This document shows, piece after piece, positions 1,030 to 42,258 of a stretch of 64,000 bases of DNA. Position 1 is the stretch's first letter. Every line of letters starts with the position of its first letter. Where the stretch lies: assembly GCF_022430525.1 (NCBI RefSeq), contig NZ_CP092519.1, positions 1,428,454 to 1,492,453 on the forward strand, given 5' to 3'. A model generated the notes under the pieces. The model searched no databases, was not told where the DNA came from, and saw nothing but the letters and a program-made list of their open reading frames with translations. The position numbers were made by a program, and so were the translations under genes. This stretch comes from Cetobacterium somerae. GTDB lineage: Bacteria; Fusobacteriota; Fusobacteriia; Fusobacteriales; Fusobacteriaceae.

Positions 1030-2262
1030 ATGACTAATTTATCAACAAAAAGTAAACTTTTACTTGGAATTCAGCACGTACTAGCTATGTTTGGAGCTAC
1101 TGTTTTAGTTCCATTTTTAACTGGTTTAAATCCATCAGTAGCTTTACTTTCAGCAGGTATAGGAACACTGCTTTTTCATCTTTGTACAAAAGGAATCGTT
1201 CCTGTTTTCTTAGGATCATCATTCGCTTTTATCGGAGCCTTAGCTCTTGTTTTAAAAGAAGAGGGAATTGCTGCTATTAAAGGTGGTGTTATCTCTGCTG
1301 GTTTCGTTTATATTTTTATGTCTTGGATGATTAAAGTTTTTGGTGTTGAGAAAATTAAATCGTTCTTTCCACCTGTTGTTGTTGGACCTATTATAATGGT
1401 TATTGGATTAAGATTAAGTCCAGTAGCTCTTTCTATGGCAGGATATTCAAATGGACACTTTGACTTAAAAAGTCTTATTGTTGCTCTTATAGTTGTAATT
1501 TCTATGATAACTATTTCAATCTTAGAAAAGTCATTTTTTAGATTAGTTCCAATTTTAATCTCTGTTATTCTTGGATATATAGTTTCTATTTTCTTAGGGT
1601 TAGTAGACTTTGGACCTATCGCTGCTGCAAATTGGATTGGTTTTTCTGGTGATGCATTAAACGATTTACTAACTTTACCTAAATTTTCTGCAACAGCTAT
1701 TTTAGCAATTGCCCCAATTGCATTAGTTGTTTTTATCGAACATATTGGAGATATTACAACGAATGGAGCTGTTGTTGGTAAAGATTTCTTTAAAAATCCA
1801 GGTATTTCAAGAACATTATTAGGAGATGGAGTTGCTACTGTTGCTGCTGGATTCTTAGGTGGACCTGCAAATACAACTTATGGAGAAAATACCGGTGTTC
1901 TTGCTGTTACTAAAGTTTATGATCCTGCTATTTTGAGAATTGCAGCTTGTTACGCAATTGTTCTAAGCTTTATTGGAAAATTTGGAGTTATTTTACAAAC
2001 TATTCCAACTCCAGTTATGGGAGGAATATCCATTATACTATTTGGTATGATTGCTTCTGTTGGAGTTAGAACTGTTATAGATGCTGAAATTGATTTTTCT
2101 CACTCTAGAAACCTTTTAATTGCATCTCTTATATTTGTTTTAGGAATTGCTATTGATAATATTATTATTTGGAAAACAGTTTCTTTATCTGGTCTTGCTA
2201 TTGCAGCTTTGATTGGAGTTTTGTTAAATAAAATATTACCTAAAGATCAACTAGATAGTTAA
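1030..2262 (+). CDS. uraA: Uracil/xanthine permease family transporter (NCS2), probable uracil permease
   Basis: A 410-residue polytopic inner-membrane protein of the nucleobase:cation symporter-2 family, expected to import uracil with protons for salvage. The sequence starts LLLGIQHVLAMFGATVLVPF, the family's first transmembrane segment, and has the conserved IEHIGDITTNGAVVGKDF segment (residues about 236-254) containing the substrate-contacting Glu, followed by GPANTTYGENTGVL. A good SD (AGGGAGG) lies 9 bases before ATG. Uracil specificity over xanthine is inferred from the close UraA-like signature and from pyr genes elsewhere in the window. No translated leader of the pyrB/carA type precedes it, as the gap to thiN is only about 60 bases. 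Confidence 0.88.
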   Translation: MTNLSTKSKLLLGIQHVLAMFGATVLVPFLTGLNPSVALLSAGIGTLLFHLCTKGIVPVFLGSSFAFIGALALVLKEEGIAAIKGGVISAGFVYIFMSWMIKVFGVEKIKSFFPPVVVGPIIMVIGLRLSPVALSMAGYSNGHFDLKSLIVALIVVISMITISILEKSFFRLVPILISVILGYIVSIFLGLVDFGPIAAANWIGFSGDALNDLLTLPKFSATAILAIAPIALVVFIEHIGDITTNGAVVGKDFFKNPGISRTLLGDGVATVAAGFLGGPANTTYGENTGVLAVTKVYDPAILRIAACYAIVLSFIGKFGVILQTIPTPVMGGISIILFGMIASVGVRTVIDAEIDFSHSRNLLIASLIFVLGIAIDNIIIWKTVSLSGLAIAALIGVLLNKILPKDQLDS

Positions 2263-22017: not shown

Positions 22018-22641
22018 TTATTTTCCCCAAGTATCAGGAGTTTTATTCCACTTTAAAGCTATTTCAGCTTCTTCTGAATCTATATAGTTCTCCTCTGTTG
22101 CAACATTAATTAATGAAGCGAAGTTTGAAAGTGTAACCCAAGGAATATGGTCTTGTTCAAAATTCTTATATGCTTTTTCAAACTCATATGAGAATATTGC
22201 TAATACTTCAACATCAATAGCTCCTGCTTCTCTTGCAGCTGCTACAGCCTTTATCGAGCTTCCTCCTGTTGATATTAAGTCTTCTATTATTATTACTTTT
22301 TTCCCTTCAAATTCAGCTCCTTCAATTTGTCTTCCTGCACCATGAGCCTTCTTTTCTCCTCTAATATAAGCCATTGGTACATTCATCTCTTGAGCTATAA
22401 ATGCTGCCCATGGAATTCCTGCTGTTGCTGTTCCTGCTACAATATCAAAGTCTTTTTCTTTTAAAACTTCTATAAAAGCATCTACTACAACTTGTCTCTC
22501 TTTAGGGAATCCTATCATTTTTCTATTGTCACAATAGATTGGACTTTTTATTCCTGATACAAAAGTAAATGGATCCTTTACACTCAATCTAACTGCCTCT
22601 GTTCCTAATAATGATTTTGCTATATTTTTTTCTCTAGACAT
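22018..22641 (-). CDS. pyrE: Orotate phosphoribosyltransferase
   Basis: It converts orotate and PRPP to OMP, the fifth step of UMP synthesis. The 207-residue protein has the PRPP-binding loop VIIIEDLISTGGSSIKA (about residues 116-132) and the flexible-loop region YIRGEKKAHGAGRQIEG. The ATG overlaps the end of pyrC by 8 bases, indicating coupled translation. It is the last gene of pyrBKDFCE and is followed by an intrinsic terminator. Confidence 0.96.
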   Translation of the reverse strand: MSREKNIAKSLLGTEAVRLSVKDPFTFVSGIKSPIYCDNRKMIGFPKERQVVVDAFIEVLKEKDFDIVAGTATAGIPWAAFIAQEMNVPMAYIRGEKKAHGAGRQIEGAEFEGKKVIIIEDLISTGGSSIKAVAAAREAGAIDVEVLAIFSYEFEKAYKNFEQDHIPWVTLSNFASLINVATEENYIDSEEAEIALKWNKTPDTWGK

Positions 22642-23839
22642 TTTTATAATTCACTCCTTCTCCAATTTTTTCTATAAAATTTTTACCATCATAAACAATA
22701 TGACCTCTTACCATAGTTAATAGTACTTTTCCCCCTCCTACTATCCCACTATAAGGTGTCCATCCACATTTTGAGATTACATCTTCATTTTTTATAATCT
22801 CTTTATTATTTAAATCTACTACAACTAAATCTGCATCATACCCAACTTCTATCTTTCCTTTTCCAGCAATCCCAAATATTTTAGCTGGATTTTCTGACAT
22901 AACTTTCTGTAAAGTTTTCATGTCTATTTTTTTATTTAATTCTTTTAACATCATCTCTAAAGAATTCTCCACCCCTGGTATTCCATATGTTGTTTTAGAA
23001 TTTTTTTCCTCTAAAGTATGTGGTGCATGATCAGTTCCTATTGTATCAATAGTCCCATCCTCTATTCCTAACCAAAGAGCATCATTATCCTCTTTGCTTT
23101 TTAGCTCTGGTTTCATTATAAGTAATGAGTTTGCCATACTTGAATCTAAAAATAAGTGGTGTGGTGCTACTTCTCCATATATTTTTAATCCCTCTTTTTT
23201 TGCAGCTCTTAACTTTTCTACCTCACTCTTTTTAGAAAGATGACATAAATATAGTGGTTTTCTAAATTTTCTAGCTAAATCTATAGCTTTATCTACCATC
23301 TCTTCCTCTGCATGAACTGATATTATTTTAGATTCTTTAAATAAATTTTCTAAAACTTTCTCCTCTTCAACTAACATATCACCTGTTGACATATTCAGAA
23401 ATATTTTAGTTGAAGCTACTCTATCTCTTACCTTTTTTATCTCTTCACTATTATCTAATTTACTTCCCCCAAAGTGAAATCCATAATCTACATAACTTCT
23501 ATTTTTAGAATTGCTCTCTTTAGCATCTAAAATCTCTTTTGTTGTTGTATTTGGAACTGTGTTTGGCATATCTATAAATGTTGTTACTCCACCCTTAGCA
23601 CATGCTTTACTTCCTGTTTCAAAATCCTCTTTATAAGATAATCCTGGATCTCTCATATGAGTATGCACATCTATTACTCCAGGTAAAACCCAGTTTCCAT
23701 CCATATCTACAATTTCATCTATGTCTAACTCTTCTACTTCTGAGCATCTATATATTTTAACAATCTTTCCTTTTTCTACTAAAATATCCTTTATATCTTC
23801 TTCTCCATGATATAAAACTCTACAGTTTTTTAGCAACAT
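22634..23839 (-). CDS. pyrC: Dihydroorotase
   Basis: A zinc amidohydrolase that cyclises carbamoyl aspartate to dihydroorotate. The 401 residues match the class I (Bacillus-type) enzyme rather than the shorter E. coli type. DVHTHMRDPG (about residues 58-67) supplies the first metal ligands and substrate Arg; SVHAEEEM and HLSKKSEV contain further metal-binding His residues, and GTDHAPHT (about 268-275) has the catalytic Asp. It overlaps pyrF by 10 bases and pyrE by 8 bases in the operon. Confidence 0.95.
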   Translation of the reverse strand: MLLKNCRVLYHGEEDIKDILVEKGKIVKIYRCSEVEELDIDEIVDMDGNWVLPGVIDVHTHMRDPGLSYKEDFETGSKACAKGGVTTFIDMPNTVPNTTTKEILDAKESNSKNRSYVDYGFHFGGSKLDNSEEIKKVRDRVASTKIFLNMSTGDMLVEEEKVLENLFKESKIISVHAEEEMVDKAIDLARKFRKPLYLCHLSKKSEVEKLRAAKKEGLKIYGEVAPHHLFLDSSMANSLLIMKPELKSKEDNDALWLGIEDGTIDTIGTDHAPHTLEEKNSKTTYGIPGVENSLEMMLKELNKKIDMKTLQKVMSENPAKIFGIAGKGKIEVGYDADLVVVDLNNKEIIKNEDVISKCGWTPYSGIVGGGKVLLTMVRGHIVYDGKNFIEKIGEGVNYKNV

Positions 23840-24558
23840 AGACTTCCCTCTTTTACTCCCTCCTCTATTTCAGCTAATACTTTTTTAGCTGCTTCTACAG
23901 GATTCTCATTTTTAGTTACTGGTCTTCCTACAACTAGATAATCACATCCATTTAGTATTGCATCTTTAGGAGTCATTATTCTCTCTTGATCATTAGCAAC
24001 TGACCATTTAGGTCTTACTCCAGGACATACTGTTTTAAAGTTTTCTCCACATAGTTCTTTAATAGCTTTTGCTTCCCACGGCGAACATACAATTCCATCC
24101 ATTCCAGCTTCTTTTGTTAATTTAGCTAAATTTAAAGCTAACTCTTTTAATGTTAATTCACTTTTAAAAGTCTCTTTTAATCCCTCTTCTGAAAAACTTG
24201 TTAAAATTGTTACAGCAATTGATAGTATTTCCGGATTTACCTCTTTTACTCTTTTTGCAACTGATTCCATCATAGCTCTTCCACCACTTGCATGCACATT
24301 AAACATAAATACATCTTGTTTAGCTGCAAATAATGATGCCATTGTTGTTGTATTTGGAATATCATGGAATTTTAAATCTAAAAATACTTTTTTACCTTTT
24401 TGAGTAAGATATTCTACCATCTCTCCCTTTGAGTTTAAAAATAGCTCTAATCCCACTTTATAAAAAGAAACTGTTTCTCCTAAAATTTCAACTATATTCT
24501 TAGCATCCTCCATATTTGAATAATCCAATGCTATTATTAATCTATCTTTAATATTCAT
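23830..24558 (-). CDS. pyrF: Orotidine 5'-phosphate decarboxylase
   Basis: It decarboxylates OMP to UMP, the last step of the pathway. The 242-residue TIM barrel begins with LIIALDYSN and carries the catalytic charged network FLDLKFHDIPNTT (Asp-Lys-Asp, about residues 59-71). PGVRPKW and the phosphate-gripping VVGRPVT follow near the C-terminus. A GGAGG SD lies before ATG. It is followed by overlapping pyrC. Confidence 0.95.
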   Translation of the reverse strand: MNIKDRLIIALDYSNMEDAKNIVEILGETVSFYKVGLELFLNSKGEMVEYLTQKGKKVFLDLKFHDIPNTTTMASLFAAKQDVFMFNVHASGGRAMMESVAKRVKEVNPEILSIAVTILTSFSEEGLKETFKSELTLKELALNLAKLTKEAGMDGIVCSPWEAKAIKELCGENFKTVCPGVRPKWSVANDQERIMTPKDAILNGCDYLVVGRPVTKNENPVEAAKKVLAEIEEGVKEGSLCC

Positions 24559-24581
24559 TTTTCCTCCGTTATTTTTATCTA

Positions 24582-25499
24582 TTAGTTGTGTGCTGCTCCT
24601 ACAATCTCTTGTATATTTTCTAATCCATTCTCTTCACAAAATTTTTCTAATCCATCTTTTATCTCAACTGGTAAAATTGGATTTGAGAATAATCCTGTTC
24701 CTAATGAAACCATTGTTGCTCCTGCCATCATAAATTCTATTGCATCCTCAGTAGAAGAAATTCCTCCCATTCCAACTATTGGTATATTTACATTTTTATA
24801 TACTTGATATACCATTCTTAAGGCTACTGGTTTTACTGCAGGTCCTGAGAACCCACCAAAAGTATTTCCTAATACAGGTTTCCTCTTTTTAATATCTATT
24901 GCCATTCCTAGTAAAGTATTTATTAAAGATACCGCATCTGCACCATTCTCTTCTACAACTTTTGCTATATGAACTATATCCGTTACATTAGGTGATAGCT
25001 TTACAATCAAAGGTTTTGTTGTTACTTCTCTAACAGCCTTTGTTACAGCTCCAGCTACTTCTGGCTTAGCACCAAATGCCATTCCTCCATCTTTTACATT
25101 TGGACATGATATATTTAATTCTATCATATCAACTTCTGGAATATTTTCTACTCTTTTAGCTATTTCAACATACTCCTCTATTACTTTTCCATTTATGTTA
25201 ACGATTATTGGAGACTCAATTCCTGATGATTTTATATTTTTTACAATTACATTTTCAAAGTAATCAATCCCTGGATTTTCAAGTCCAACACAGTTTAGCA
25301 TTCCTCCTGGAGTCTCTGCTATTCTAGTTCCATAGTTACCATCTCTAGGTTCCATTGTTATTCCTTTTACTACAATTCCTCCCAAAACATTTGGATCAAA
25401 ATAATCCTTATACTCTAATCCAAAACCAAAACATCCTGATGATGTTACCATTGGATTTTTAAATTCTTTTCCTAAAAAATTTGTTTTTAATCTATTCAT
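24582..25499 (-). CDS. pyrD: Dihydroorotate dehydrogenase B, catalytic subunit
   Basis: An FMN enzyme oxidising dihydroorotate to orotate, working with PyrK to pass electrons to NAD+. 305 residues; ATG 25499 is preferred since AAGGGAG lies 8 bases upstream, over a GTG at 25523 that overlaps pyrK. TSSGCFGFG, NCVGLENPG, the class 1 active-site segment ELNISCPNVKDGG (catalytic Cys, about residues 130-142) and GMGGISSTEDA are present. Type 1B is supported by the adjacent pyrK. Confidence 0.95.
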   Translation of the reverse strand: MNRLKTNFLGKEFKNPMVTSSGCFGFGLEYKDYFDPNVLGGIVVKGITMEPRDGNYGTRIAETPGGMLNCVGLENPGIDYFENVIVKNIKSSGIESPIIVNINGKVIEEYVEIAKRVENIPEVDMIELNISCPNVKDGGMAFGAKPEVAGAVTKAVREVTTKPLIVKLSPNVTDIVHIAKVVEENGADAVSLINTLLGMAIDIKKRKPVLGNTFGGFSGPAVKPVALRMVYQVYKNVNIPIVGMGGISSTEDAIEFMMAGATMVSLGTGLFSNPILPVEIKDGLEKFCEENGLENIQEIVGAAHN

Positions 25500-25512
25500 C
25501 TTTTCCACTCCC

Positions 25513-26316
25513 TTAGTTTCCACAGCTACACCCTGTATTTTCTTTAGGATTTACATCCACTATTATTTTTGAATCAAAAACCGGTCCATCATGACAAACT
25601 TTTTTCATCCCATCTAATGTTTTTATTGAACATCCAACACATGCTTTAACTCCACATGCCATTCTTTCTTCTAAAGATACTTCACAAAACACATCTGCTT
25701 TTAGCGTTGTTTCTGCTACTGCTTCCATCATTTTATGAGGTCCACAAGTTTGAACCATATCTATCTTTTCATCAGATAAAACTCTACTTAAAACAGATAT
25801 TACATTTCCTTTTTCTCCTAAAGAACCATCATCTGTTGTTATATATGTTTTTATTCCATCTAAATTTAAATTTTCTAATATATTTAAAGCTTCTTTCCCT
25901 CTTCCGCCAGCTATAAATATAACTTCATTTTCTTTTTTTAACTCATCTATTAGTAGCTTTGTTGGAGCGATTCCCATTCCTCCACCAACAACAACACACT
26001 TTTTATTTTTTACTTCTGTTGTAAATCCTCTTCCTAAAGGTCCTTGAATATTTAAAATTTCTCCAACTTCAAGTGTAGCAAACTCCTTTGTCCCTCCACC
26101 TTTTACTTCATAATAAAACTCTAAAATATTTTTATCTTTATCTACATAATGAAGACTGATTGGTCTTCTTAAAATTCTTATTTCATTTTTTAATTTTAAC
26201 ATAAAAAACTGCCCAGCTTTTGAATATTGAGAAGCCTTCTCAGATTCTATTTTCATTAAGTAGTAGTCTTCTCCAACTTTATAATTTTCTAATACTTTAC
26301 AATCCTCTAAAAACAT
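25513..26316 (-). CDS. pyrK: Dihydroorotate dehydrogenase B, electron transfer subunit
   Basis: 267 residues. It holds FAD and a [2Fe-2S] cluster and moves electrons from PyrD to NAD+. The FAD-binding LRRPISLHYV (about residues 53-62), NAD-binding GGGMGIAPTKLL (about 112-123), and the cluster ligands CEVSLEERMACGVKACVGC with a later CHDGPVF are all visible. It sits between pyrB and pyrD, as expected for a 1B-type system. Confidence 0.95.
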   Translation of the reverse strand: MFLEDCKVLENYKVGEDYYLMKIESEKASQYSKAGQFFMLKLKNEIRILRRPISLHYVDKDKNILEFYYEVKGGGTKEFATLEVGEILNIQGPLGRGFTTEVKNKKCVVVGGGMGIAPTKLLIDELKKENEVIFIAGGRGKEALNILENLNLDGIKTYITTDDGSLGEKGNVISVLSRVLSDEKIDMVQTCGPHKMMEAVAETTLKADVFCEVSLEERMACGVKACVGCSIKTLDGMKKVCHDGPVFDSKIIVDVNPKENTGCSCGN

Positions 26317-26346: not shown

Positions 26347-27411
26347 TTATTTTTTTATATCTCTATTACAGTAATAACAATATTCATGTTCTTTATCTAA
26401 AACATATTTGTTTTCTGTTTCCTCAAACTTTGTGATACATTTTTCATTACTACAAATAATTTCAGTTGATTTTCTAATATCTTTTTCTAGCCTCTCATAC
26501 TTTAATGTTTCTATTAATCCTAAAGCTATTGAAAAAATCGCTTCTCTTGTTGGAACTCCATTTGCTGCTTGCTCAAAATATTTAGCGTGTTTTGTTTCAT
26601 CCAAATCTATTTTTATTTCATCTACTCTAGGCAACGGATGTAAAATTATCATATCTTCTTTACATTTACCTACAATACTTTCTTTATCTATAATATAAAC
26701 TCCAGCTACTTTTTCATAATCTTCTTGATTATCAAATCTTTCCTTTTGAATTCTTGTCATATATAATACATCTATCTCTTTTAATACATCTTTATAATCA
26801 TTTAATATATGATATTTTATATTTTTTTTCTCAAGCTCTCTTGCAATATACTCTGGTATTTGGATTACTTCTGGTGCTATAAAGTAAAACTCACAGTTGA
26901 ACATCTCTAATGCTTTTGTTAATGAATGAACTGTTCTTCCATATTTTAAATCCCCTACAAAAGCCACCTTTTTTCCTTCTATACTTCCAAATTCTTTTTC
27001 AATTGTATATAGATCTAAAAGGGTTTGGCTTGGATGCTCATTAGCTCCATCCCCTGCATTTATTACTGGCACTTTTGCTATATCTGCTGCAAAACGAGCC
27101 GCTCCATCTCTATTATGTCTCATAACAATTACATCCGAATAAGCTTCTGTCATCTTTATCGTATCTCTTAACGATTCCCCTTTTTTTAAAGAAGTAGCAT
27201 CTGGTGAATCAAATCCTAAAACTTTAGCTCCTAATCTATAAGCAGCTGATGTGAATGATAACCTTGTTCTTGTTGAAGGTTCGAAAAATAAGCTTCCAAC
27301 TATTTTATTTTTCAAAAGTTCTTCATTTTTTTTCTCTAACTCTTTTGCTACTCTTAAAACCTCTAAAATATCACCTTTTGTAAAATCTTTCATTGAAATA
27401 AAATCTCTCAT
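26347..27411 (-). CDS. pyrB: Aspartate carbamoyltransferase catalytic chain with a C-terminal PyrI-like zinc tail
   Basis: It makes carbamoyl aspartate from carbamoyl phosphate and aspartate. Residues 1 to about 305 are close in pattern to E. coli PyrB: FFEPSTRTRLSF (carbamoyl-phosphate loop), VMRHNRDGAAR, GANEHPSQTLLDL, VGDLKYGRTVHSL and HPLPRVDEI. A further tail of about 45 residues holds Cys320-x4-Cys325-x19-Cys345-x2-Cys348, the pattern of the PyrI zinc domain (C-x4-C-x~23-C-x2-C). No PyrI allosteric domain and no separate pyrI gene are present in the window. First gene of pyrBKDFCE, behind a translated-leader attenuator. Confidence 0.95.
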   Translation of the reverse strand: MRDFISMKDFTKGDILEVLRVAKELEKKNEELLKNKIVGSLFFEPSTRTRLSFTSAAYRLGAKVLGFDSPDATSLKKGESLRDTIKMTEAYSDVIVMRHNRDGAARFAADIAKVPVINAGDGANEHPSQTLLDLYTIEKEFGSIEGKKVAFVGDLKYGRTVHSLTKALEMFNCEFYFIAPEVIQIPEYIARELEKKNIKYHILNDYKDVLKEIDVLYMTRIQKERFDNQEDYEKVAGVYIIDKESIVGKCKEDMIILHPLPRVDEIKIDLDETKHAKYFEQAANGVPTREAIFSIALGLIETLKYERLEKDIRKSTEIICSNEKCITKFEETENKYVLDKEHEYCYYCNRDIKK

Positions 27412-27435: not shown

Positions 27436-27480
27436 AAAAAAAAAGGAATAGAAATTACAAATTAATGTAACTTCTATTCC
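27436..27480 (-). terminator. pyrB attenuator (intrinsic terminator inside the leader gene)
   Basis: On the - strand GGAATAGAAGTTAC pairs with GTAATTTCTATTCC (14 bp, one G-U) across an 8-base loop, followed by nine Ts. The leader reading frame covers the whole 5' arm and loop and stops at the first bases of the 3' arm. pyrB starts 25 bases beyond the T run. Confidence 0.93.
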
Positions 27481-27577
27481 ATATATTAAAATCAAAATTA
27501 AAAGATAAAAATAATGAAAATAGTATTTTTTTCTTTTTTTCTTTTTTTAATCCAAAAATACTTAACAACTTTTTCAC
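27455..27577 (-). CDS. pyrB leader peptide (PyrL-like, 40 residues)
   Basis: A short reading frame with GTG start at 27577 preceded by GGGAGGA at an 8-base distance. The peptide begins with V/M-KKLLSIFGL, then a Lys-rich run (KKEKKKK, residues 11-17), then a Phe/Leu/Asn/Ser stretch encoded almost wholly by U-rich codons, and ends NRSYINL with TAA in the attenuator hairpin. The layout equals that of the E. coli pyrBI leader: U-rich transcript where low UTP would pause RNA polymerase, and a ribosome that must be close behind to block hairpin formation. The function is inferred; the frame, SD and hairpin are directly visible. Confidence 0.85.
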   Translation of the reverse strand: MKKLLSIFGLKKEKKKKILFSLFLSFNFDFNIWNRSYINL

Positions 27578-27611
27578 TTTTTATCCTCCCTGCTTTTTTT
27601 ACGCTTTGAAA

Positions 27612-27640
27612 AGTATATCATACCTTTTTAAATTTGTAAA
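27612..27640 (-). promoter_or_regulatory. Promoter of the pyrBKDFCE operon
   Basis: On the - strand: TTTACA (27640-27635), 17-base spacer, TATACT (27617-27612). The -35 overlaps the last codons of the upstream cysteine desulfurase gene. Confidence 0.85.
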
Positions 27641-37235: not shown

Positions 37236-40200
37236 TTATATTTGTGCTATATCAAATACATCTAAATCCATCTTATCAACATTTAATTCTTGAACTTTTA
37301 TTATTGCATTTAAAGTATCTATCGAAGTTAATACCTCTACCCCATATTCAATAGCCGTTCTTCTTATTTTAAATCCATCTCTTTGAGCATCATTTGCCTT
37401 AGTTGGAGTATTTATTAATAAATCTACTTCTCTATTTTTTAATAAATCTAAAATATTTGGTGATTCTTCATTTATTTTTCTTACTGCTGTTGCTTCAATT
37501 CCTTTTTCTGCTAAATATTTCTGAGTTCCCTCTGTTGCAAACAGTTGACAACCTAAGCTTTTAAGTGATTTTGCAACTGGTAAAAATTCATCTTTGTCCT
37601 TATCTCTTATTGTTAAAAGAACTTTTCTATTTCTTACATTTTGAACTCTTCCACCACCTAAAAGACCTTTAAATATAGCTTCATCTGCTGTATGTCCAAC
37701 TCCTAAAACCTCTCCTGTAGATTTCATCTCAGGTCCTAATGATACTTCTACTCCTGATAATTTCTCTGTTGAAAATACTGGAACTTTAACTGCAACTACA
37801 GATGGCTTTTTATAAATACCAGTTCCAAATCCTAAGTTTTGAAGTTTTTCTCCCATTATTACTTTTGTTGCTATATCAATTACTGGAACTCCAGATATTT
37901 TTGCTATATAAGGTACTGTTCTTGATGATCTAGGGTTTACCTCAATTACATATAACTCATTCTCATATGCTATAAACTGAATATTCATCATACCTTTTAT
38001 TTTTAATTCTTTTGCTATTTTTCTTGTAATCTCTTCAATTTTCTTTTCTGTACCCTCGTATAAATTTTGTGGTGGATATATTGTTATTGAATCTCCCGAA
38101 TGTATTCCAGCTCTTTCTAAGTGCTCCATAACTCCTGGTATTAAAATATCCTCACCATCACATATCGCATCTACTTCTACTTCAATTCCATTTAAATATT
38201 TATCTATTAAAACTGGATTTTCAGGATCTCTTTCAAATGAAGCTTTTAGATAATTTACAAGATTATATTCATCATGACAAATCTCCATTCCTTGTCCACC
38301 TAGAACATATGAAGGTCTTACTAAAACTGGATATTGTACTTCTGCTGCTATTTTCTTTCCAAGCTCAACATCCCATACAGCTTTACCTTTTGGTCTTTTT
38401 ATATCTAATTTTTCCATTATATCTTCAAACTTTTCTCTATCTTCTGCAGCATCAACCATCTCTGCTGAAGTTCCAAGGATTGTAACTCCTCTATCTCTTA
38501 AGTCATTAGCTAATTTTATTGCTGTTTGACCTCCAAATTGAATGATTACTCCTGCTGGTTTTTCCTTATCAATGATATTCATAACATCCTCTGTTACTAA
38601 TGGCTCAAAGTAAAGTCTATCTGCAGTTGAGAAGTCTGTAGATACTGTTTCTGGATTGTTATTTATAATAATACTTTCTATTCCCATATTTCTTAAAGTT
38701 TTTATCGAATGAACTGTACAGTAGTCAAACTCTATTCCTTGCCCTATTCTTATTGGACCAGATCCTATTACTATAACTTTCTTTTTATCTGTTACATCAA
38801 CTTCATCAAATTGATCGTATGTTGAATAAAAGTATGATGAATCTGCAGCAAACTCTCCTGCACATGTATCAACCATTTTATAAACTGGTTTAATTCCATA
38901 ATCTCTTCTTTTTCTAGCGATATCTTGTTCCGTTACATTTAGCAACTGAGCTATTCCTTTATCTGAGAATCCTTTTTTCTTAGCATTTTTTAAGAATTTT
39001 TCATCTAAATCTTTAAGCTCCATCTTTTTCATTAACTCTTCTTGTTTTACAAGCCACTCTAATTTCTCCATAAAGAACTTATCTATTCCAGTTAATTTCT
39101 GTAACTTTTCTTTTACATATCCTCTTCTTAACATCTCAGCAACAACGAAAATTCTTTCATCATCTGGTCTTACAACTATCTCTTTTAATTCTTCCATAGT
39201 CATTTTCTCTACCACAGGATGCTCTAAATTATATCTTCCAATTTCTAATGATCTTAGTCCTTTTAAAAATGCAGCTTCAAAGTTATTTCCAATAGCCATA
39301 ACCTCTCCAGTTGCCATCATTTTCGTACCTAGTCTTTTATTAGCTTTCTTAAATTTATCAAATGGCCACTTTGGAATTTTTACTACTATATAATCCAATG
39401 CTGGTTCAAAACATGCAAAAGTTTTTCCAGTTACTTCATTTACAACTTCATCTAATGTATATCCTAAAGATAATCTTGTTGCAACTCTTGCTATAGGATA
39501 TCCTGTAGCTTTTGAAGCTAACGCAGATGATCTAGAAACTCTTGGATTTATTTCAATAATTGCATATTCAAATGATTTTGGATGAAGAGCAAACTGAACG
39601 TTACAACCTCCAACTACCCCTATCTCATTTATTATTTTCAATGCTGATGTTCTTAACATTTGATACTCTCTATCTGAAAGCGTTTGAGATGGTGCTACAA
39701 CTATAGAGTCTCCTGTATGGATACCAACTGGATCTATATTCTCCATATTACAAACAGTTATACAGTTTCCATCTTTATCTCTGATTACTTCGTATTCAAC
39801 TTCTTTCCATCCTAAGATTGATTTTTCAATTAATACTTGTCCAACTCTTGACAGCTTTAATCCTTTTAATAAAATATCCTCTAATTCTTGAGGGTTATCT
39901 GCAATTCCCCCTCCTGTTCCTCCTAGAGTATATGCTGGTCTTACAACAACTGGATATCCGATTTCTTTTGCAACTCTAAATCCATCTTCTAAAGTCTCAA
40001 CTATTTTACTCTCTATTGTAGGCTCTCCAATTTTATCCATAGCCTCTCTAAATAATTCTCTATCTTCTCCTCTTTTTATAGATTCAATAGATGTTCCTAT
40101 AACTCTTACATTATACTTCTCAAGTATTCCTTTATCGTTTAATTCAACTGCCATGTTTAGAGCTGTTTGTCCACCCATTCCAGCTAAAATAGAATCTGGT

Positions 40201-40442
40201 CTTTCTTTTGCAATTACTTTTTCCACAAATTCTGCTGTAATTGGCTCTATATATATTTTATCTGCAACTGCCTTATCCGTCATTATTGTTGCTGGGTTAG
40301 AGTTTATTAATACAACTTCTATCCCCTCTTTTTTTAATGTTTCACATGCTTGAGTTCCTGAATAATCAAACTCTGCCGCTTGTCCTATTATAATTGGTCC
40401 CGATCCTATTACCAGTGTCTTTTTTATCGATTTATCTAACAT
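37236..40442 (-). CDS. carB: Carbamoyl-phosphate synthase large subunit
   Basis: It makes carbamoyl phosphate from bicarbonate, ammonia (from CarA) and two ATP. At 1068 residues it has the standard layout: two homologous ATP-grasp halves ([19 protein letters not shown] near residue 12 and [18 protein letters not shown] near 560), an oligomerisation domain between them, and a C-terminal MGS-like allosteric domain (about 935-1068), where UMP normally inhibits. [10 protein letters not shown] and GGQGMEI are the ATP lids. No SD-distant gap: carB follows carA by 40 bases. The stop lies just upstream of the promoter for the P-type ATPase. Confidence 0.97.
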
Positions 40443-40482: not shown

Positions 40483-41535
40483 TTATCCCTCTATTACTTT
40501 TAAAAAATCATCAAACAGATATTCTGAATCAGCTGGTCCTGGCCATGCTTCTGGGTGATACTGTACACATAAAATTCTATGCTCTTCACTTCTCATTCCT
40601 TCAATAGAGTTATCATTTAAATTTATATGTGTTACTTTCATTGATTCAGGCACTTTATCTACAACGTAACCATGATTTTGTGATGTTATAAATATTCTAT
40701 TTTTTTCTAAATCTTTAACTGGATGATTACACCCTCTATGTCCATACTTTAACTTTGTTGTTGTTCCACCTAAAGCCCAAGCTAATAACTGATGTCCTAA
40801 ACATATTCCAACAATAGGTAATTTTCCAACTAATTTTTTTATTTCGTTTATTACTCCAGTTAACTCTGCTGGATCTCCTGGTCCATTTGATAAAAACACT
40901 GCATCTAAATCATGTGATAATAACTCTTCTGCAGTTACATTCCAAGGAAATACAATTTGATGAACTCCTCTTTTTTCAAATGATCTTAATATATTTCTTT
41001 TAACACCGAAATCTATCACTCCTATTCTTTTTCCAGGTCCAGGAATTTCATAAATCTCTTTTGTGCTAACTTTTTCTACAGCATCACTATTATTAAATTT
41101 TGCAAAATGCTCATCTATCTCTTTTTGAGTTAAATCTTTTGAAGTTATTAGAGCTTTCATCGCTCCTTCTTCTCTTATTATTTTAGTTAAATGTCTTGTA
41201 TCTACACCTTTAAATCCAACTACATTATATTGTCTTAAAAATCCATCTAATGTCATTTCACATCTAAAGTTATTTGGAAGCTTTGCGTCCTCTTTAATTA
41301 TAAATCCTTTTAACTTTATTCCGCTAGATTCCATATCCTCTAAGTTTATTCCATAGTTTCCAACCATTGGATAAGTCATAACAACAATTTGACCATAATA
41401 TGATGGATCCGTAAGTAACTCTTGGTACCCTGTCATTCCTGTATTAAATACAAGCTCTCCAACGCTTTCACCTAATTCTCCAAAAATTTTTCCATCAAAA
41501 CTCATTCCGTTTTCAAGAATTAACTTCCCCTTCAT
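40483..41535 (-). CDS. carA: Carbamoyl-phosphate synthase small subunit (glutaminase)
   Basis: It hydrolyses glutamine and channels ammonia to CarB. The 350-residue protein has the N-terminal CPSase small-chain domain (GYQELLTDPSYYGQIVVMTY) and a C-terminal class I amidotransferase triad: Cys in GICLGHQLLAWALGG (about residues 241-255), His and Glu in VQYHPEAWPGP. Its SD, AGGAGG, overlaps the stop codon (TAG) of the leader gene, so leader termination and carA initiation may be linked. Expression probably serves both pyrimidines and arginine. Confidence 0.96.
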   Translation of the reverse strand: MKGKLILENGMSFDGKIFGELGESVGELVFNTGMTGYQELLTDPSYYGQIVVMTYPMVGNYGINLEDMESSGIKLKGFIIKEDAKLPNNFRCEMTLDGFLRQYNVVGFKGVDTRHLTKIIREEGAMKALITSKDLTQKEIDEHFAKFNNSDAVEKVSTKEIYEIPGPGKRIGVIDFGVKRNILRSFEKRGVHQIVFPWNVTAEELLSHDLDAVFLSNGPGDPAELTGVINEIKKLVGKLPIVGICLGHQLLAWALGGTTTKLKYGHRGCNHPVKDLEKNRIFITSQNHGYVVDKVPESMKVTHINLNDNSIEGMRSEEHRILCVQYHPEAWPGPADSEYLFDDFLKVIEG

Positions 41536-41544
41536 CTAAACCTC

Positions 41545-41727
41545 CTAAATTTTTTGCATAAAAAAAGGAATATGAAAATCATATTCCTTGTCTATATAAA
41601 TATTAAAATTAAAAACTAATAAATTTAAAAACATAAATAAATTATTAATAAATGAAATAAATAAATTTAAAAACGACAAATAGTTTTTCTTTTTTTTCTT
41701 AATTTTTGTGCCATTTTTAAAAAACAT
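41545..41727 (-). CDS. carA leader peptide (PyrL-like, 60 residues)
   Basis: An ATG at 41727 follows AAGGAGG by 8 bases. The 60-codon frame shows the pattern seen before pyrB: a short start, a Lys-rich stretch (residues 8-14, KIKKKKK), then a long Phe/Leu/Asn/Ile tract encoded by U-rich codons. It reads straight through the attenuator hairpin (codons 47-54) and its T run, ending at TAG only 9 bases before the carA ATG. The peptide itself has no recognisable domain and is unlikely to matter; what counts is ribosome position. It was not translated by shadowing of any other gene. Confidence 0.82.
   Translation of the reverse strand: MFFKNGTKIKKKKKNYLSFLNLFISFINNLFMFLNLLVFNFNIYIDKEYDFHIPFFMQKI
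41559..41588 (-). terminator. carA attenuator (intrinsic terminator inside the leader gene)
   Basis: On the - strand AGGAATATGA pairs with TCATATTCCT (10 bp) across a 3-base loop, followed by seven Ts. The leader frame is open across the whole structure. Confidence 0.88.
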
Positions 41728-41759
41728 ATTCCATCCTCCTTTTTTTTGCTCTGAGAAAG

Positions 41760-41788
41760 AGTATATACTAATTTTAAAAAGTTGTCAA
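41760..41788 (-). promoter_or_regulatory. Promoter of the carAB unit
   Basis: On the - strand: TTGACA (41788-41783), 17-base spacer, TATACT (41765-41760), a near-consensus match. Confidence 0.88.
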
Positions 41789-41874: not shown

Positions 41875-42258
41875 ATGGATTATAAAATCGTTACCAATAA
41901 TAATAAAGTTTTCAATTTTTTCAAAGAAACAGATAATGTAGTTTATTTAGAAGGATATAATATTGAAAAAGTTCTAAATTTTATCGAACAAAAATGTTTA
42001 GAAGGACATAGATTATTAAGTGACCCTATTTTATATAATTTAGAAAATCTAGATAATCCTTTTAAATCAATTTTAATAACAGATAAACAAATTGAGGACA
42101 ATACTCACTCAATTAAAATAATTGTTGGTGTTTTAGATATTATTAAAAAAGTTAATTTTACACCTAAAGAAGTTCAAGACGAAATCTCTTTAGAAGAATT
42201 TAGATTTGTTGATTTAAATTTAATTAGAGATAGTATCACAAAAATTAGTTTACTTTAA
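41875..42258 (+). CDS. GrdX-family-like protein
   Basis: 127 residues. The segment EGHRLLSDPILYN-LENLDNPFKSILIT (residues about 42-69) resembles the conserved GH-LL-HP-----PYKS block of GrdX, a small protein of unknown activity first seen in glycine reductase operons. TNNNKVFNFF at the start also agrees. No glycine, sarcosine or betaine reductase genes are near. The gene is a single-gene unit with an excellent SD (GGGAGG) and its own promoter and terminator. The call is made by memory of the motif pattern and needs a profile search. Confidence 0.55.
   Translation: MDYKIVTNNNKVFNFFKETDNVVYLEGYNIEKVLNFIEQKCLEGHRLLSDPILYNLENLDNPFKSILITDKQIEDNTHSIKIIVGVLDIIKKVNFTPKEVQDEISLEEFRFVDLNLIRDSITKISLL

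What the first reader, a model, noticed from the sequence alone, without database searches (positions are those of the whole stretch)
41545..41788. A second, independent pyrL-like attenuator in front of carAB
Seen: the same device as at pyrB but with unrelated sequence: near-consensus promoter, 60-codon leader with a KIKKKKK run and a U-rich tract, and a terminator read through by the leader frame. The leader stop lies within the carA SD, adding possible translational coupling. Known: E. coli carAB is not controlled in this way but by tandem promoters and several DNA-binding proteins. Inference: two convergent or duplicated leaders make a UTP-responsive regulon in this organism.
Basis: partly seen in the sequence, partly recalled or inferred. 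Interest (0 to 1): 0.75.

Follow-up and report, generated by a model that had tools for sequence, protein, structure and literature searches.

The report
UTP-type attenuator before carAB
In this bacterium (Cetobacterium) the genes that start pyrimidine synthesis appear to sit behind an RNA off-switch that a ribosome keeps open only when the polymerase slows for lack of UTP, a device known from E. coli pyrB but here also at carAB and repeated across much of a different phylum.

Summary
On the minus strand a near-consensus promoter, an SD-led 60-codon leader with a lysine run, a U-rich stretch and an intrinsic terminator lie directly before carA. The pyrB operon has the same anatomy with an unrelated sequence.

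Comparison shows the design is selected. With one strict detector, 57 of 87 Fusobacteriota genomes examined carry at least one such leader at carA or pyrB; in the window's own family it is 50 of 59. The controls argF and guaA give 0 of 19 and 0 of 20, shuffles 20 of 4680. No antiterminator pairing is detectable. PyrR occurs in 3 of 98 genomes, a single genus, which lacks the leaders.

Best explanation: UTP-sensitive, translation-coupled attenuation that works like E. coli pyrL. UTP response and dependence on translation are inferred, not shown. One result blurs specificity: 24 of 62 clostridial carA loci also have leader frames entering hairpins, though less U-rich.

The parts
41760..41788 (-). 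promoter TTGACA-17-TATACT of the carAB operon
   Evidence: 11 of 12 matches; conserved in the genus
41735..41740 (-). Shine-Dalgarno AGGAGG of the leader
41545..41727 (-). 60-codon leader frame, runs through the terminator and stops in the carA SD
   Evidence: frame and start kept in the genus
41686..41706 (-). KIKKKKK codons: A-rich stretch with few U
   Evidence: an A-rich 5' end is general in the leaders
41590..41681 (-). U-rich stretch (0.58 T in the last 60 nt before the hairpin), presumed UTP-sensitive pause zone
41558..41589 (-). intrinsic terminator: hairpin 41589-41565 plus U run (attenuator)
41541..41546 (-). carA Shine-Dalgarno AGGAGG overlapping the leader stop TAG (41547-41545)
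40483..41535 (-). carA, carbamoyl-phosphate synthase small subunit
   Evidence: NF009475, TIGR01368 over cut-off
37236..40442 (-). carB, carbamoyl-phosphate synthase large subunit
   Evidence: NF003671 over cut-off
27612..27640 (-). promoter TTTACA-17-TATACT of the pyrB operon
   Evidence: 10 of 12
27455..27577 (-). 40-codon GTG-start leader of the pyrB operon, stop inside the hairpin
27445..27480 (-). terminator hairpin of the pyrB leader, U run follows
   Evidence: -18.7 kcal/mol
26347..27411 (-). pyrB, aspartate carbamoyltransferase
22018..26316 (-). rest of the pyr operon: pyrDII, pyrD, pyrF, pyrC, pyrE

Best explanation
It is a UTP-sensitive, translation-coupled transcription attenuator of the carAB operon. 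Transcription starts about 41753; a ribosome loads at the strong SD and translates the A-rich, lysine-coding start of the leader. The polymerase then enters a stretch that is over half U. When UTP is plentiful it crosses quickly, outruns the ribosome, the hairpin at 41589-41565 forms and transcription stops before carA. When UTP is short it pauses, the ribosome catches up, covers the 5' arm of the hairpin (here the frame even reads through it) and transcription runs into carAB, which restores UTP. The pyrB-pyrDII-pyrD-pyrF-pyrC-pyrE operon in the same window is under its own copy of this design, so all steps to UMP are covered. In this species the leader stop overlaps the carA SD, which may add reinitiation. 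Shown: the anatomy, its conservation, lack of PyrR and of a detectable antiterminator. Inferred: the start site, translation of the leader, UTP as the signal, direction of the response.
For: Anatomy. Strict detector: carA 49 of 77 places, pyrB 39 of 83; argF 0 of 19, guaA 0 of 20 although 15 guaA have a terminator, which in 3 of 3 guaA loci tested goes with a purine riboswitch. Two loci misplaced also have leaders. Per genome 57 of 87, own family 50 of 59. Named relatives: 14 of 17 by the strict detector, 16 of 17 by a looser one, including Fusobacterium mortiferum, Propionigenium maris and Psychrilyobacter MAGs. Shuffles: 20 of 4680. Own-genome background: 9 of 537 genes, two of them carA and pyrB. 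U content before the hairpin 0.54 (52 representatives) against 0.32 at guaA terminators and 0.32 in ordinary genes. In 45 of 52 representatives the frame stops inside the hairpin, in 5 beyond it, in 2 at most 10 nt before. Antiterminator search: mean z 0.10, 1 of 88 below -2. Frame conserved, pN/pS 0.48-0.89 in five groups, peptide not conserved between genera. PyrR in 3 of 98 genomes, none of them with a leader. The same functions, with a looser SD rule, find E. coli pyrL.
Against: No expression data. 30 of 87 genomes have no strict leader, among them all 13 of one large genus (g21), so other controls exist in the phylum. 24 of 62 clostridial carA loci also have strict leader frames into hairpins, 11 of them with T at least 0.42, so the leader-into-terminator layout at carA is not unique to this device. 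An A/T-rich genome makes U-rich stretches cheap; the claim rests on strand asymmetry (T 0.54, A 0.33). pN/pS of 0.6 is only mild constraint. A weak promoter-like match lies inside the leader (41606-41578, 9 of 12) and could bypass the terminator. Uracil permease, upp and pyrG lack the device.
Confidence: 0.82

Rival explanations
1. Amino-acid attenuation of the trp type: ribosome stalling at lysine or arginine codons of the leader switches between antiterminator and terminator.
For: The KIKKKKK run; carbamoyl phosphate also feeds arginine synthesis; leaders have more K+R in the first 20 residues than ordinary genes, 4.7 against 2.8.
Against: No alternative pairing of the hairpin 5' arm (mean z 0.10). 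The stop lies in or after the hairpin, so a ribosome that finishes the leader blocks the terminator, the opposite of the trp logic. Arg is scarce near the hairpin (0.36 per last 14 residues). The lysine run lies about 95 nt before the hairpin.
Confidence: 0.06
2. A PyrR site, a riboswitch or another RNA-binding regulator controls the terminator, and the frame is incidental.
For: Terminators before pyr genes are often of this kind in Firmicutes (recalled); RF00515 occurs in the one fusobacterial genus with PyrR (2 of 3 loci).
Against: No Rfam match at the leader or in 17 named fusobacterial carA loci except a purine riboswitch elsewhere in L010. No PyrR over cut-off in this genome. The leader without its terminator is no more folded than shuffles here (z 0.34). 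The frame is kept while the sequence is not.
Confidence: 0.05
3. The leader senses transcription-translation coupling in general (ribosome availability, another nucleotide, translation stress) and not UTP in particular.
For: A translational stall upstream of pyrL increases termination at its hairpin in E. coli when EF-P is missing (PMC5021804, passages). A is also high in the leaders (0.33).
Against: The U bias on the RNA strand, and the restriction of U-rich short leaders to the two pyr operons among 537 sampled genes, point to UTP.
Confidence: 0.1
4. The frame only raises translation of carA by coupling or reinitiation at its SD, and the hairpin is an ordinary terminator of an upstream small RNA.
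For: Stop/SD overlap; reinitiation at close leaders has been proposed (PMC4833913, passages).
Against: The overlap is absent in 3 of 10 strict genus leaders and in most other genera, where the stop lies inside the hairpin.
Confidence: 0.04

Closest known systems
E. coli pyrBI attenuator with leader pyrL (UTP-sensitive, translation-coupled attenuation)
   Same: Promoter, strong SD, short leader frame with a short lysine patch before a U-rich stretch, terminator crossed by the frame, stop just before the first gene; mechanism described in PMC10135430 (passages).
   Different: No sequence relation; different phylum; here at carAB as well as pyrB; leader longer and much richer in A/U; stem not GC-rich.
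E. coli carAB control
   Same: Same genes, and a UTP-dependent layer exists (reiterative initiation at P1; PMC6245113, passages).
   Different: E. coli uses two promoters, ArgR and other DNA-binding proteins, and attenuation is reported as not involved at P2; here one promoter, a leader and a terminator.
PyrR-dependent attenuation of pyr operons (RF00515)
   Same: Terminator-based control of pyrimidine operons.
   Different: No PyrR gene and no PyrR site here; within the phylum PyrR is confined to one genus that lacks the leaders.
carA motif of beta-proteobacteria (PMC8632094, passages)
   Same: RNA element directly before carA, proposed to replace protein control.
   Different: That motif is an extended hairpin proposed as a riboswitch, with no leader frame mentioned in the passages seen.

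Membership tests
UTP-sensitive translation-coupled attenuator (pyrBI/pyrL kind) | SD-led leader frame that runs into or through the terminator | tested here: met
UTP-sensitive translation-coupled attenuator (pyrBI/pyrL kind) | intrinsic terminator directly before a pyrimidine operon | tested here: met
UTP-sensitive translation-coupled attenuator (pyrBI/pyrL kind) | U-rich stretch between leader start and hairpin | tested here: met
   0.58 T in 60 nt here; group mean 0.54 against 0.32 in controls
UTP-sensitive translation-coupled attenuator (pyrBI/pyrL kind) | no antiterminator needed | tested here: met
   a negative result of one kind of search
UTP-sensitive translation-coupled attenuator (pyrBI/pyrL kind) | readthrough rises when UTP falls | not testable with these tools
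   needs expression or in vitro data
UTP-sensitive translation-coupled attenuator (pyrBI/pyrL kind) | regulation depends on translation of the leader | not testable with these tools
   frame conservation only
homologue of E. coli pyrL | common descent shown by sequence | tested here: not met
   no alignment; so it works like pyrL but is not shown to be its homologue
PyrR-dependent attenuator | pyrR gene in the genome | tested here: not met
   best 22.9 bits against cut-off 138
PyrR-dependent attenuator | PyrR binding site RF00515 | tested here: not met
trp-type amino-acid attenuator | antiterminator that excludes the terminator | tested here: not met

The most novel reading that the evidence does not exclude
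Translation-coupled UTP sensing is the default control of de novo pyrimidine synthesis in the window's family and parts of its phylum. It sits at carAB and pyrB as separate devices whose sequences turn over while the A-rich start, U-rich middle and blocked hairpin stay, is absent from the one genus that carries a PyrR operon, and arose independently of E. coli pyrL.
Probability: 0.62. Interest if true: 0.66.

Novelty: new member of a known kind. Interest (0 to 1): 0.52.

Why it matters
If true, control without a regulator protein, known mainly from E. coli pyrBI, is the main way a whole family of bacteria sets its pyrimidine supply, and at carAB it stands where E. coli uses a set of proteins and promoters. 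It gives dozens of natural variants (52 leaders at below 60% identity within a gene) of one design, which lets the rules of ribosome-polymerase timing be read from sequence, and a ready prediction: uracil should repress carAB and pyrB in these bacteria without any repressor.

Tried and rejected
Trp-type attenuation, PyrR, riboswitch and plain translational coupling were tested and set aside (see rivals). A family link between the two leaders was not found; the DNA alignment is dominated by A and T. A second match of the carA leader in this genome (L002) lies inside a sensor-kinase-like gene by eye and is taken as chance. A first hairpin finder without bulges missed several pyrB hairpins and was replaced; one search read minus-strand loci in the wrong orientation and was redone. 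In one search the loci L126 and L156 were misplaced because their contigs end early; one search gives leaders for both. L144 starts beyond its contig and cannot be judged. Rescue with a looser SD rule adds 5 pyrB and 8 carA leaders; made after the fact, it is not in the counts.

Rows left out: of the full-length CarA matches, 10 from genus g21 were not fetched (3 of that genus were); of the PyrB matches, ornithine-carbamoyltransferase-like rows were used only as controls (20 fetched, 1 too short), and truncated rows of G058 and G063 and a marginal G047 row were not used. For guaA 20 rows were taken as controls. pyrG: 6 loci found in 12 genus genomes. The permease set mixes uracil and other permeases, and the start of L178 was not placed.

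Literature: ten searches listed no paper on attenuation of carAB or pyrB in Fusobacteria in the held open library; of the F. nucleatum transcriptome paper PMC11005410 only passages were seen, with no occurrence of pyrB, carA, leader or attenuat- in the main text; its tables were not available. Two main reviews (PMC2415746, PMC6710462) are not held, so novelty is judged against this library and recall.

Full report
What is there. The window lies in a 2.97-Mb genome whose CarA is 99% identical to that of an uncultured Cetobacterium, phylum Fusobacteriota. On the minus strand carA (40483-41535) and carB (37236-40442) are preceded by a promoter of 11 of 12 consensus bases, an SD AGGAGG, a 60-codon frame and a terminator. 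The frame holds KIKKKKK, then codons for F, L, I, N, Y that make a U-rich RNA, crosses the hairpin and ends with a TAG that overlaps the carA SD. The hairpin is strong for this DNA (-11.8 kcal/mol, z -6.46). The pyrB operon (pyrB-pyrDII-pyrD-pyrF-pyrC-pyrE) has a 40-codon GTG-start leader of the same design with a stop inside a -18.7 kcal/mol hairpin. The two leader peptides are unrelated.

Is it more than chance. I wrote one strict detector: terminator of at most -5 kcal/mol within 150 nt of the gene, and an SD-led frame of at least 20 codons that starts 40-260 nt before the hairpin and stops no earlier than 10 nt before it. In Fusobacteriota it finds leaders at 49 of 77 carA places and 39 of 83 pyrB places, at 0 of 19 argF and 0 of 20 guaA places. 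guaA is a good control, because 15 of the 20 have a terminator; 3 of 3 guaA loci tested carry a purine riboswitch. Two further leaders come from loci that were misplaced. If the region before the hairpin is shuffled, 20 of 4680 trials pass. In about 28% of the own genome, 9 of 537 genes pass: carA, pyrB and seven others; most of the seven show ordinary small proteins before them, such as an ATP synthase c-like and a YggT-like protein (names by eye, recalled), and only one of the seven is as U-rich. The other two frames of the 88 leaders are open to the hairpin in 4 of 176 cases.

Where it occurs. Per genome, 57 of 87 examined have at least one strict leader: 50 of 59 in the family of the window (Fusobacteriaceae, judged from the named relatives), 6 of 26 in a second family, 1 of 1 in another, 0 of 1 in another. 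All 12 genomes of the own genus have one. Of the nine negatives in the family, three have PyrR, two have a leader under a looser SD rule (G042, G044), three (genus g12) have a terminator before pyrB without a U-rich leader, and one (G039) was examined only at a distant carA copy. Where carA and pyrB are close on one contig in the same direction, as in g14, the leader sits at carA. Named relatives: 14 of 17 strict, 16 of 17 by the first, looser detector; one (L017) has none. A PyrR search gives 3 of 98 genomes, one genus, with pyrR next to pyrB and RF00515 in 2 of 3 loci; none has the leader. This is one event in one genus and suggests exchange of one control for another; it is not a statistical law.

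How it works. Three points fix the logic. First, the stop lies inside the hairpin in 45 of 52 distinct leaders, beyond it in 5, at most 10 nt before it in 2; so a ribosome that keeps up blocks the terminator. Second, there is no sign of an antiterminator (mean z 0.10 over 88), which excludes the trp logic as far as folding can. Third, the RNA between start and hairpin is A-rich and then U-rich: 0.46 A in the first 15 nt, 0.62 T at 60-75 nt; the last 60 nt have 0.54 T against 0.32 at guaA terminators and in ordinary genes. This is what a UTP sensor needs: little U while the ribosome loads, much U while it catches up. The lysine run is best read as that A-rich part, though K+R is above ordinary gene starts (4.7 against 2.8 of 20). 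E. coli pyrL shows the same order with a lysine patch before its U-rich part, and its mechanism is described in PMC10135430 (passages).

Selection. Within five groups the frame is kept in protein-guided alignments, and pN/pS is 0.48-0.89: the frame matters, the peptide little. Between genera the peptides are not recognisably alike.

What does not fit or is open. All 13 genomes of g21 lack the device at pyrB, and the 3 of its carA places examined lack it too. 24 of 62 clostridial carA loci have strict leader frames into hairpins (false positives 3 of 1760 shuffles); these are less U-rich (mean 0.39) and often carry Arg codons near the hairpin. So carA leaders that enter terminators exist in a second phylum and may serve another signal. 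Uracil permease (0 of 30 permease loci), upp (0 of 12) and pyrG (0 of 6) in the genus lack leaders. Stop/SD overlap occurs in 7 of 10 strict genus carA leaders and is an extra. UTP response, leader translation and the start site are not shown.

Judgement. It works like the E. coli pyrBI attenuator; it is not shown to be its homologue. I found no report of it in Fusobacteria in the searches named, but the key reviews could not be read. I rate it a new member of a known kind, of more than routine interest because it covers carAB and most of a family of bacteria.

Noticed in passing
window 1030-2262 (+) and loci L168-L182: The uracil permease gene has no leader but a very conserved promoter and first transcribed stretch (TTGAC, then TGTAGGCTATTTAATAG or close to it) in 11 of 12 genus loci printed. 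It could be a UTP-dependent start (stuttering or start-site choice).
   Followed up: partly
L027-L081 (clostridial carA loci): 24 of 62 clostridial carA loci have SD-led frames running into terminators, often ending with Arg pairs (RIVRR, LRRIT) at the hairpin; no antiterminator seen. Possibly an arginine-responsive leader.
   Followed up: partly
window 41740-41765 and 27595-27617: Behind the -10 boxes of carA and pyrB lies a similar stretch (TATACT, a few pyrimidine-rich bases, AGAGC or AAGYGT, then an A run), conserved in the genus; function unknown.
   Followed up: no
window 41875-42258 (+): A GrdX-family gene is divergent from the carA leader; the two share a short intergenic space.
   Followed up: no
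G015-G017, L165-L167: One fusobacterial genus carries pyrR next to a divergent pyrB (37-41% identity to this PyrB), with PyrR sites in 2 of 3 loci; it looks acquired as a block.
   Followed up: partly
L289, L291, L292 (genus g4): Second carA copies (61% identity) in G025, G026 and G028 have their own U-rich leaders.
   Followed up: no
L266, L269-L273, L277, L278 (genus g14): carA leaders of the Psychrilyobacter-like genus share a conserved peptide core (LFLKDVPYITYG, then FLNFNN), more conserved than elsewhere, pN/pS 0.48.
   Followed up: no
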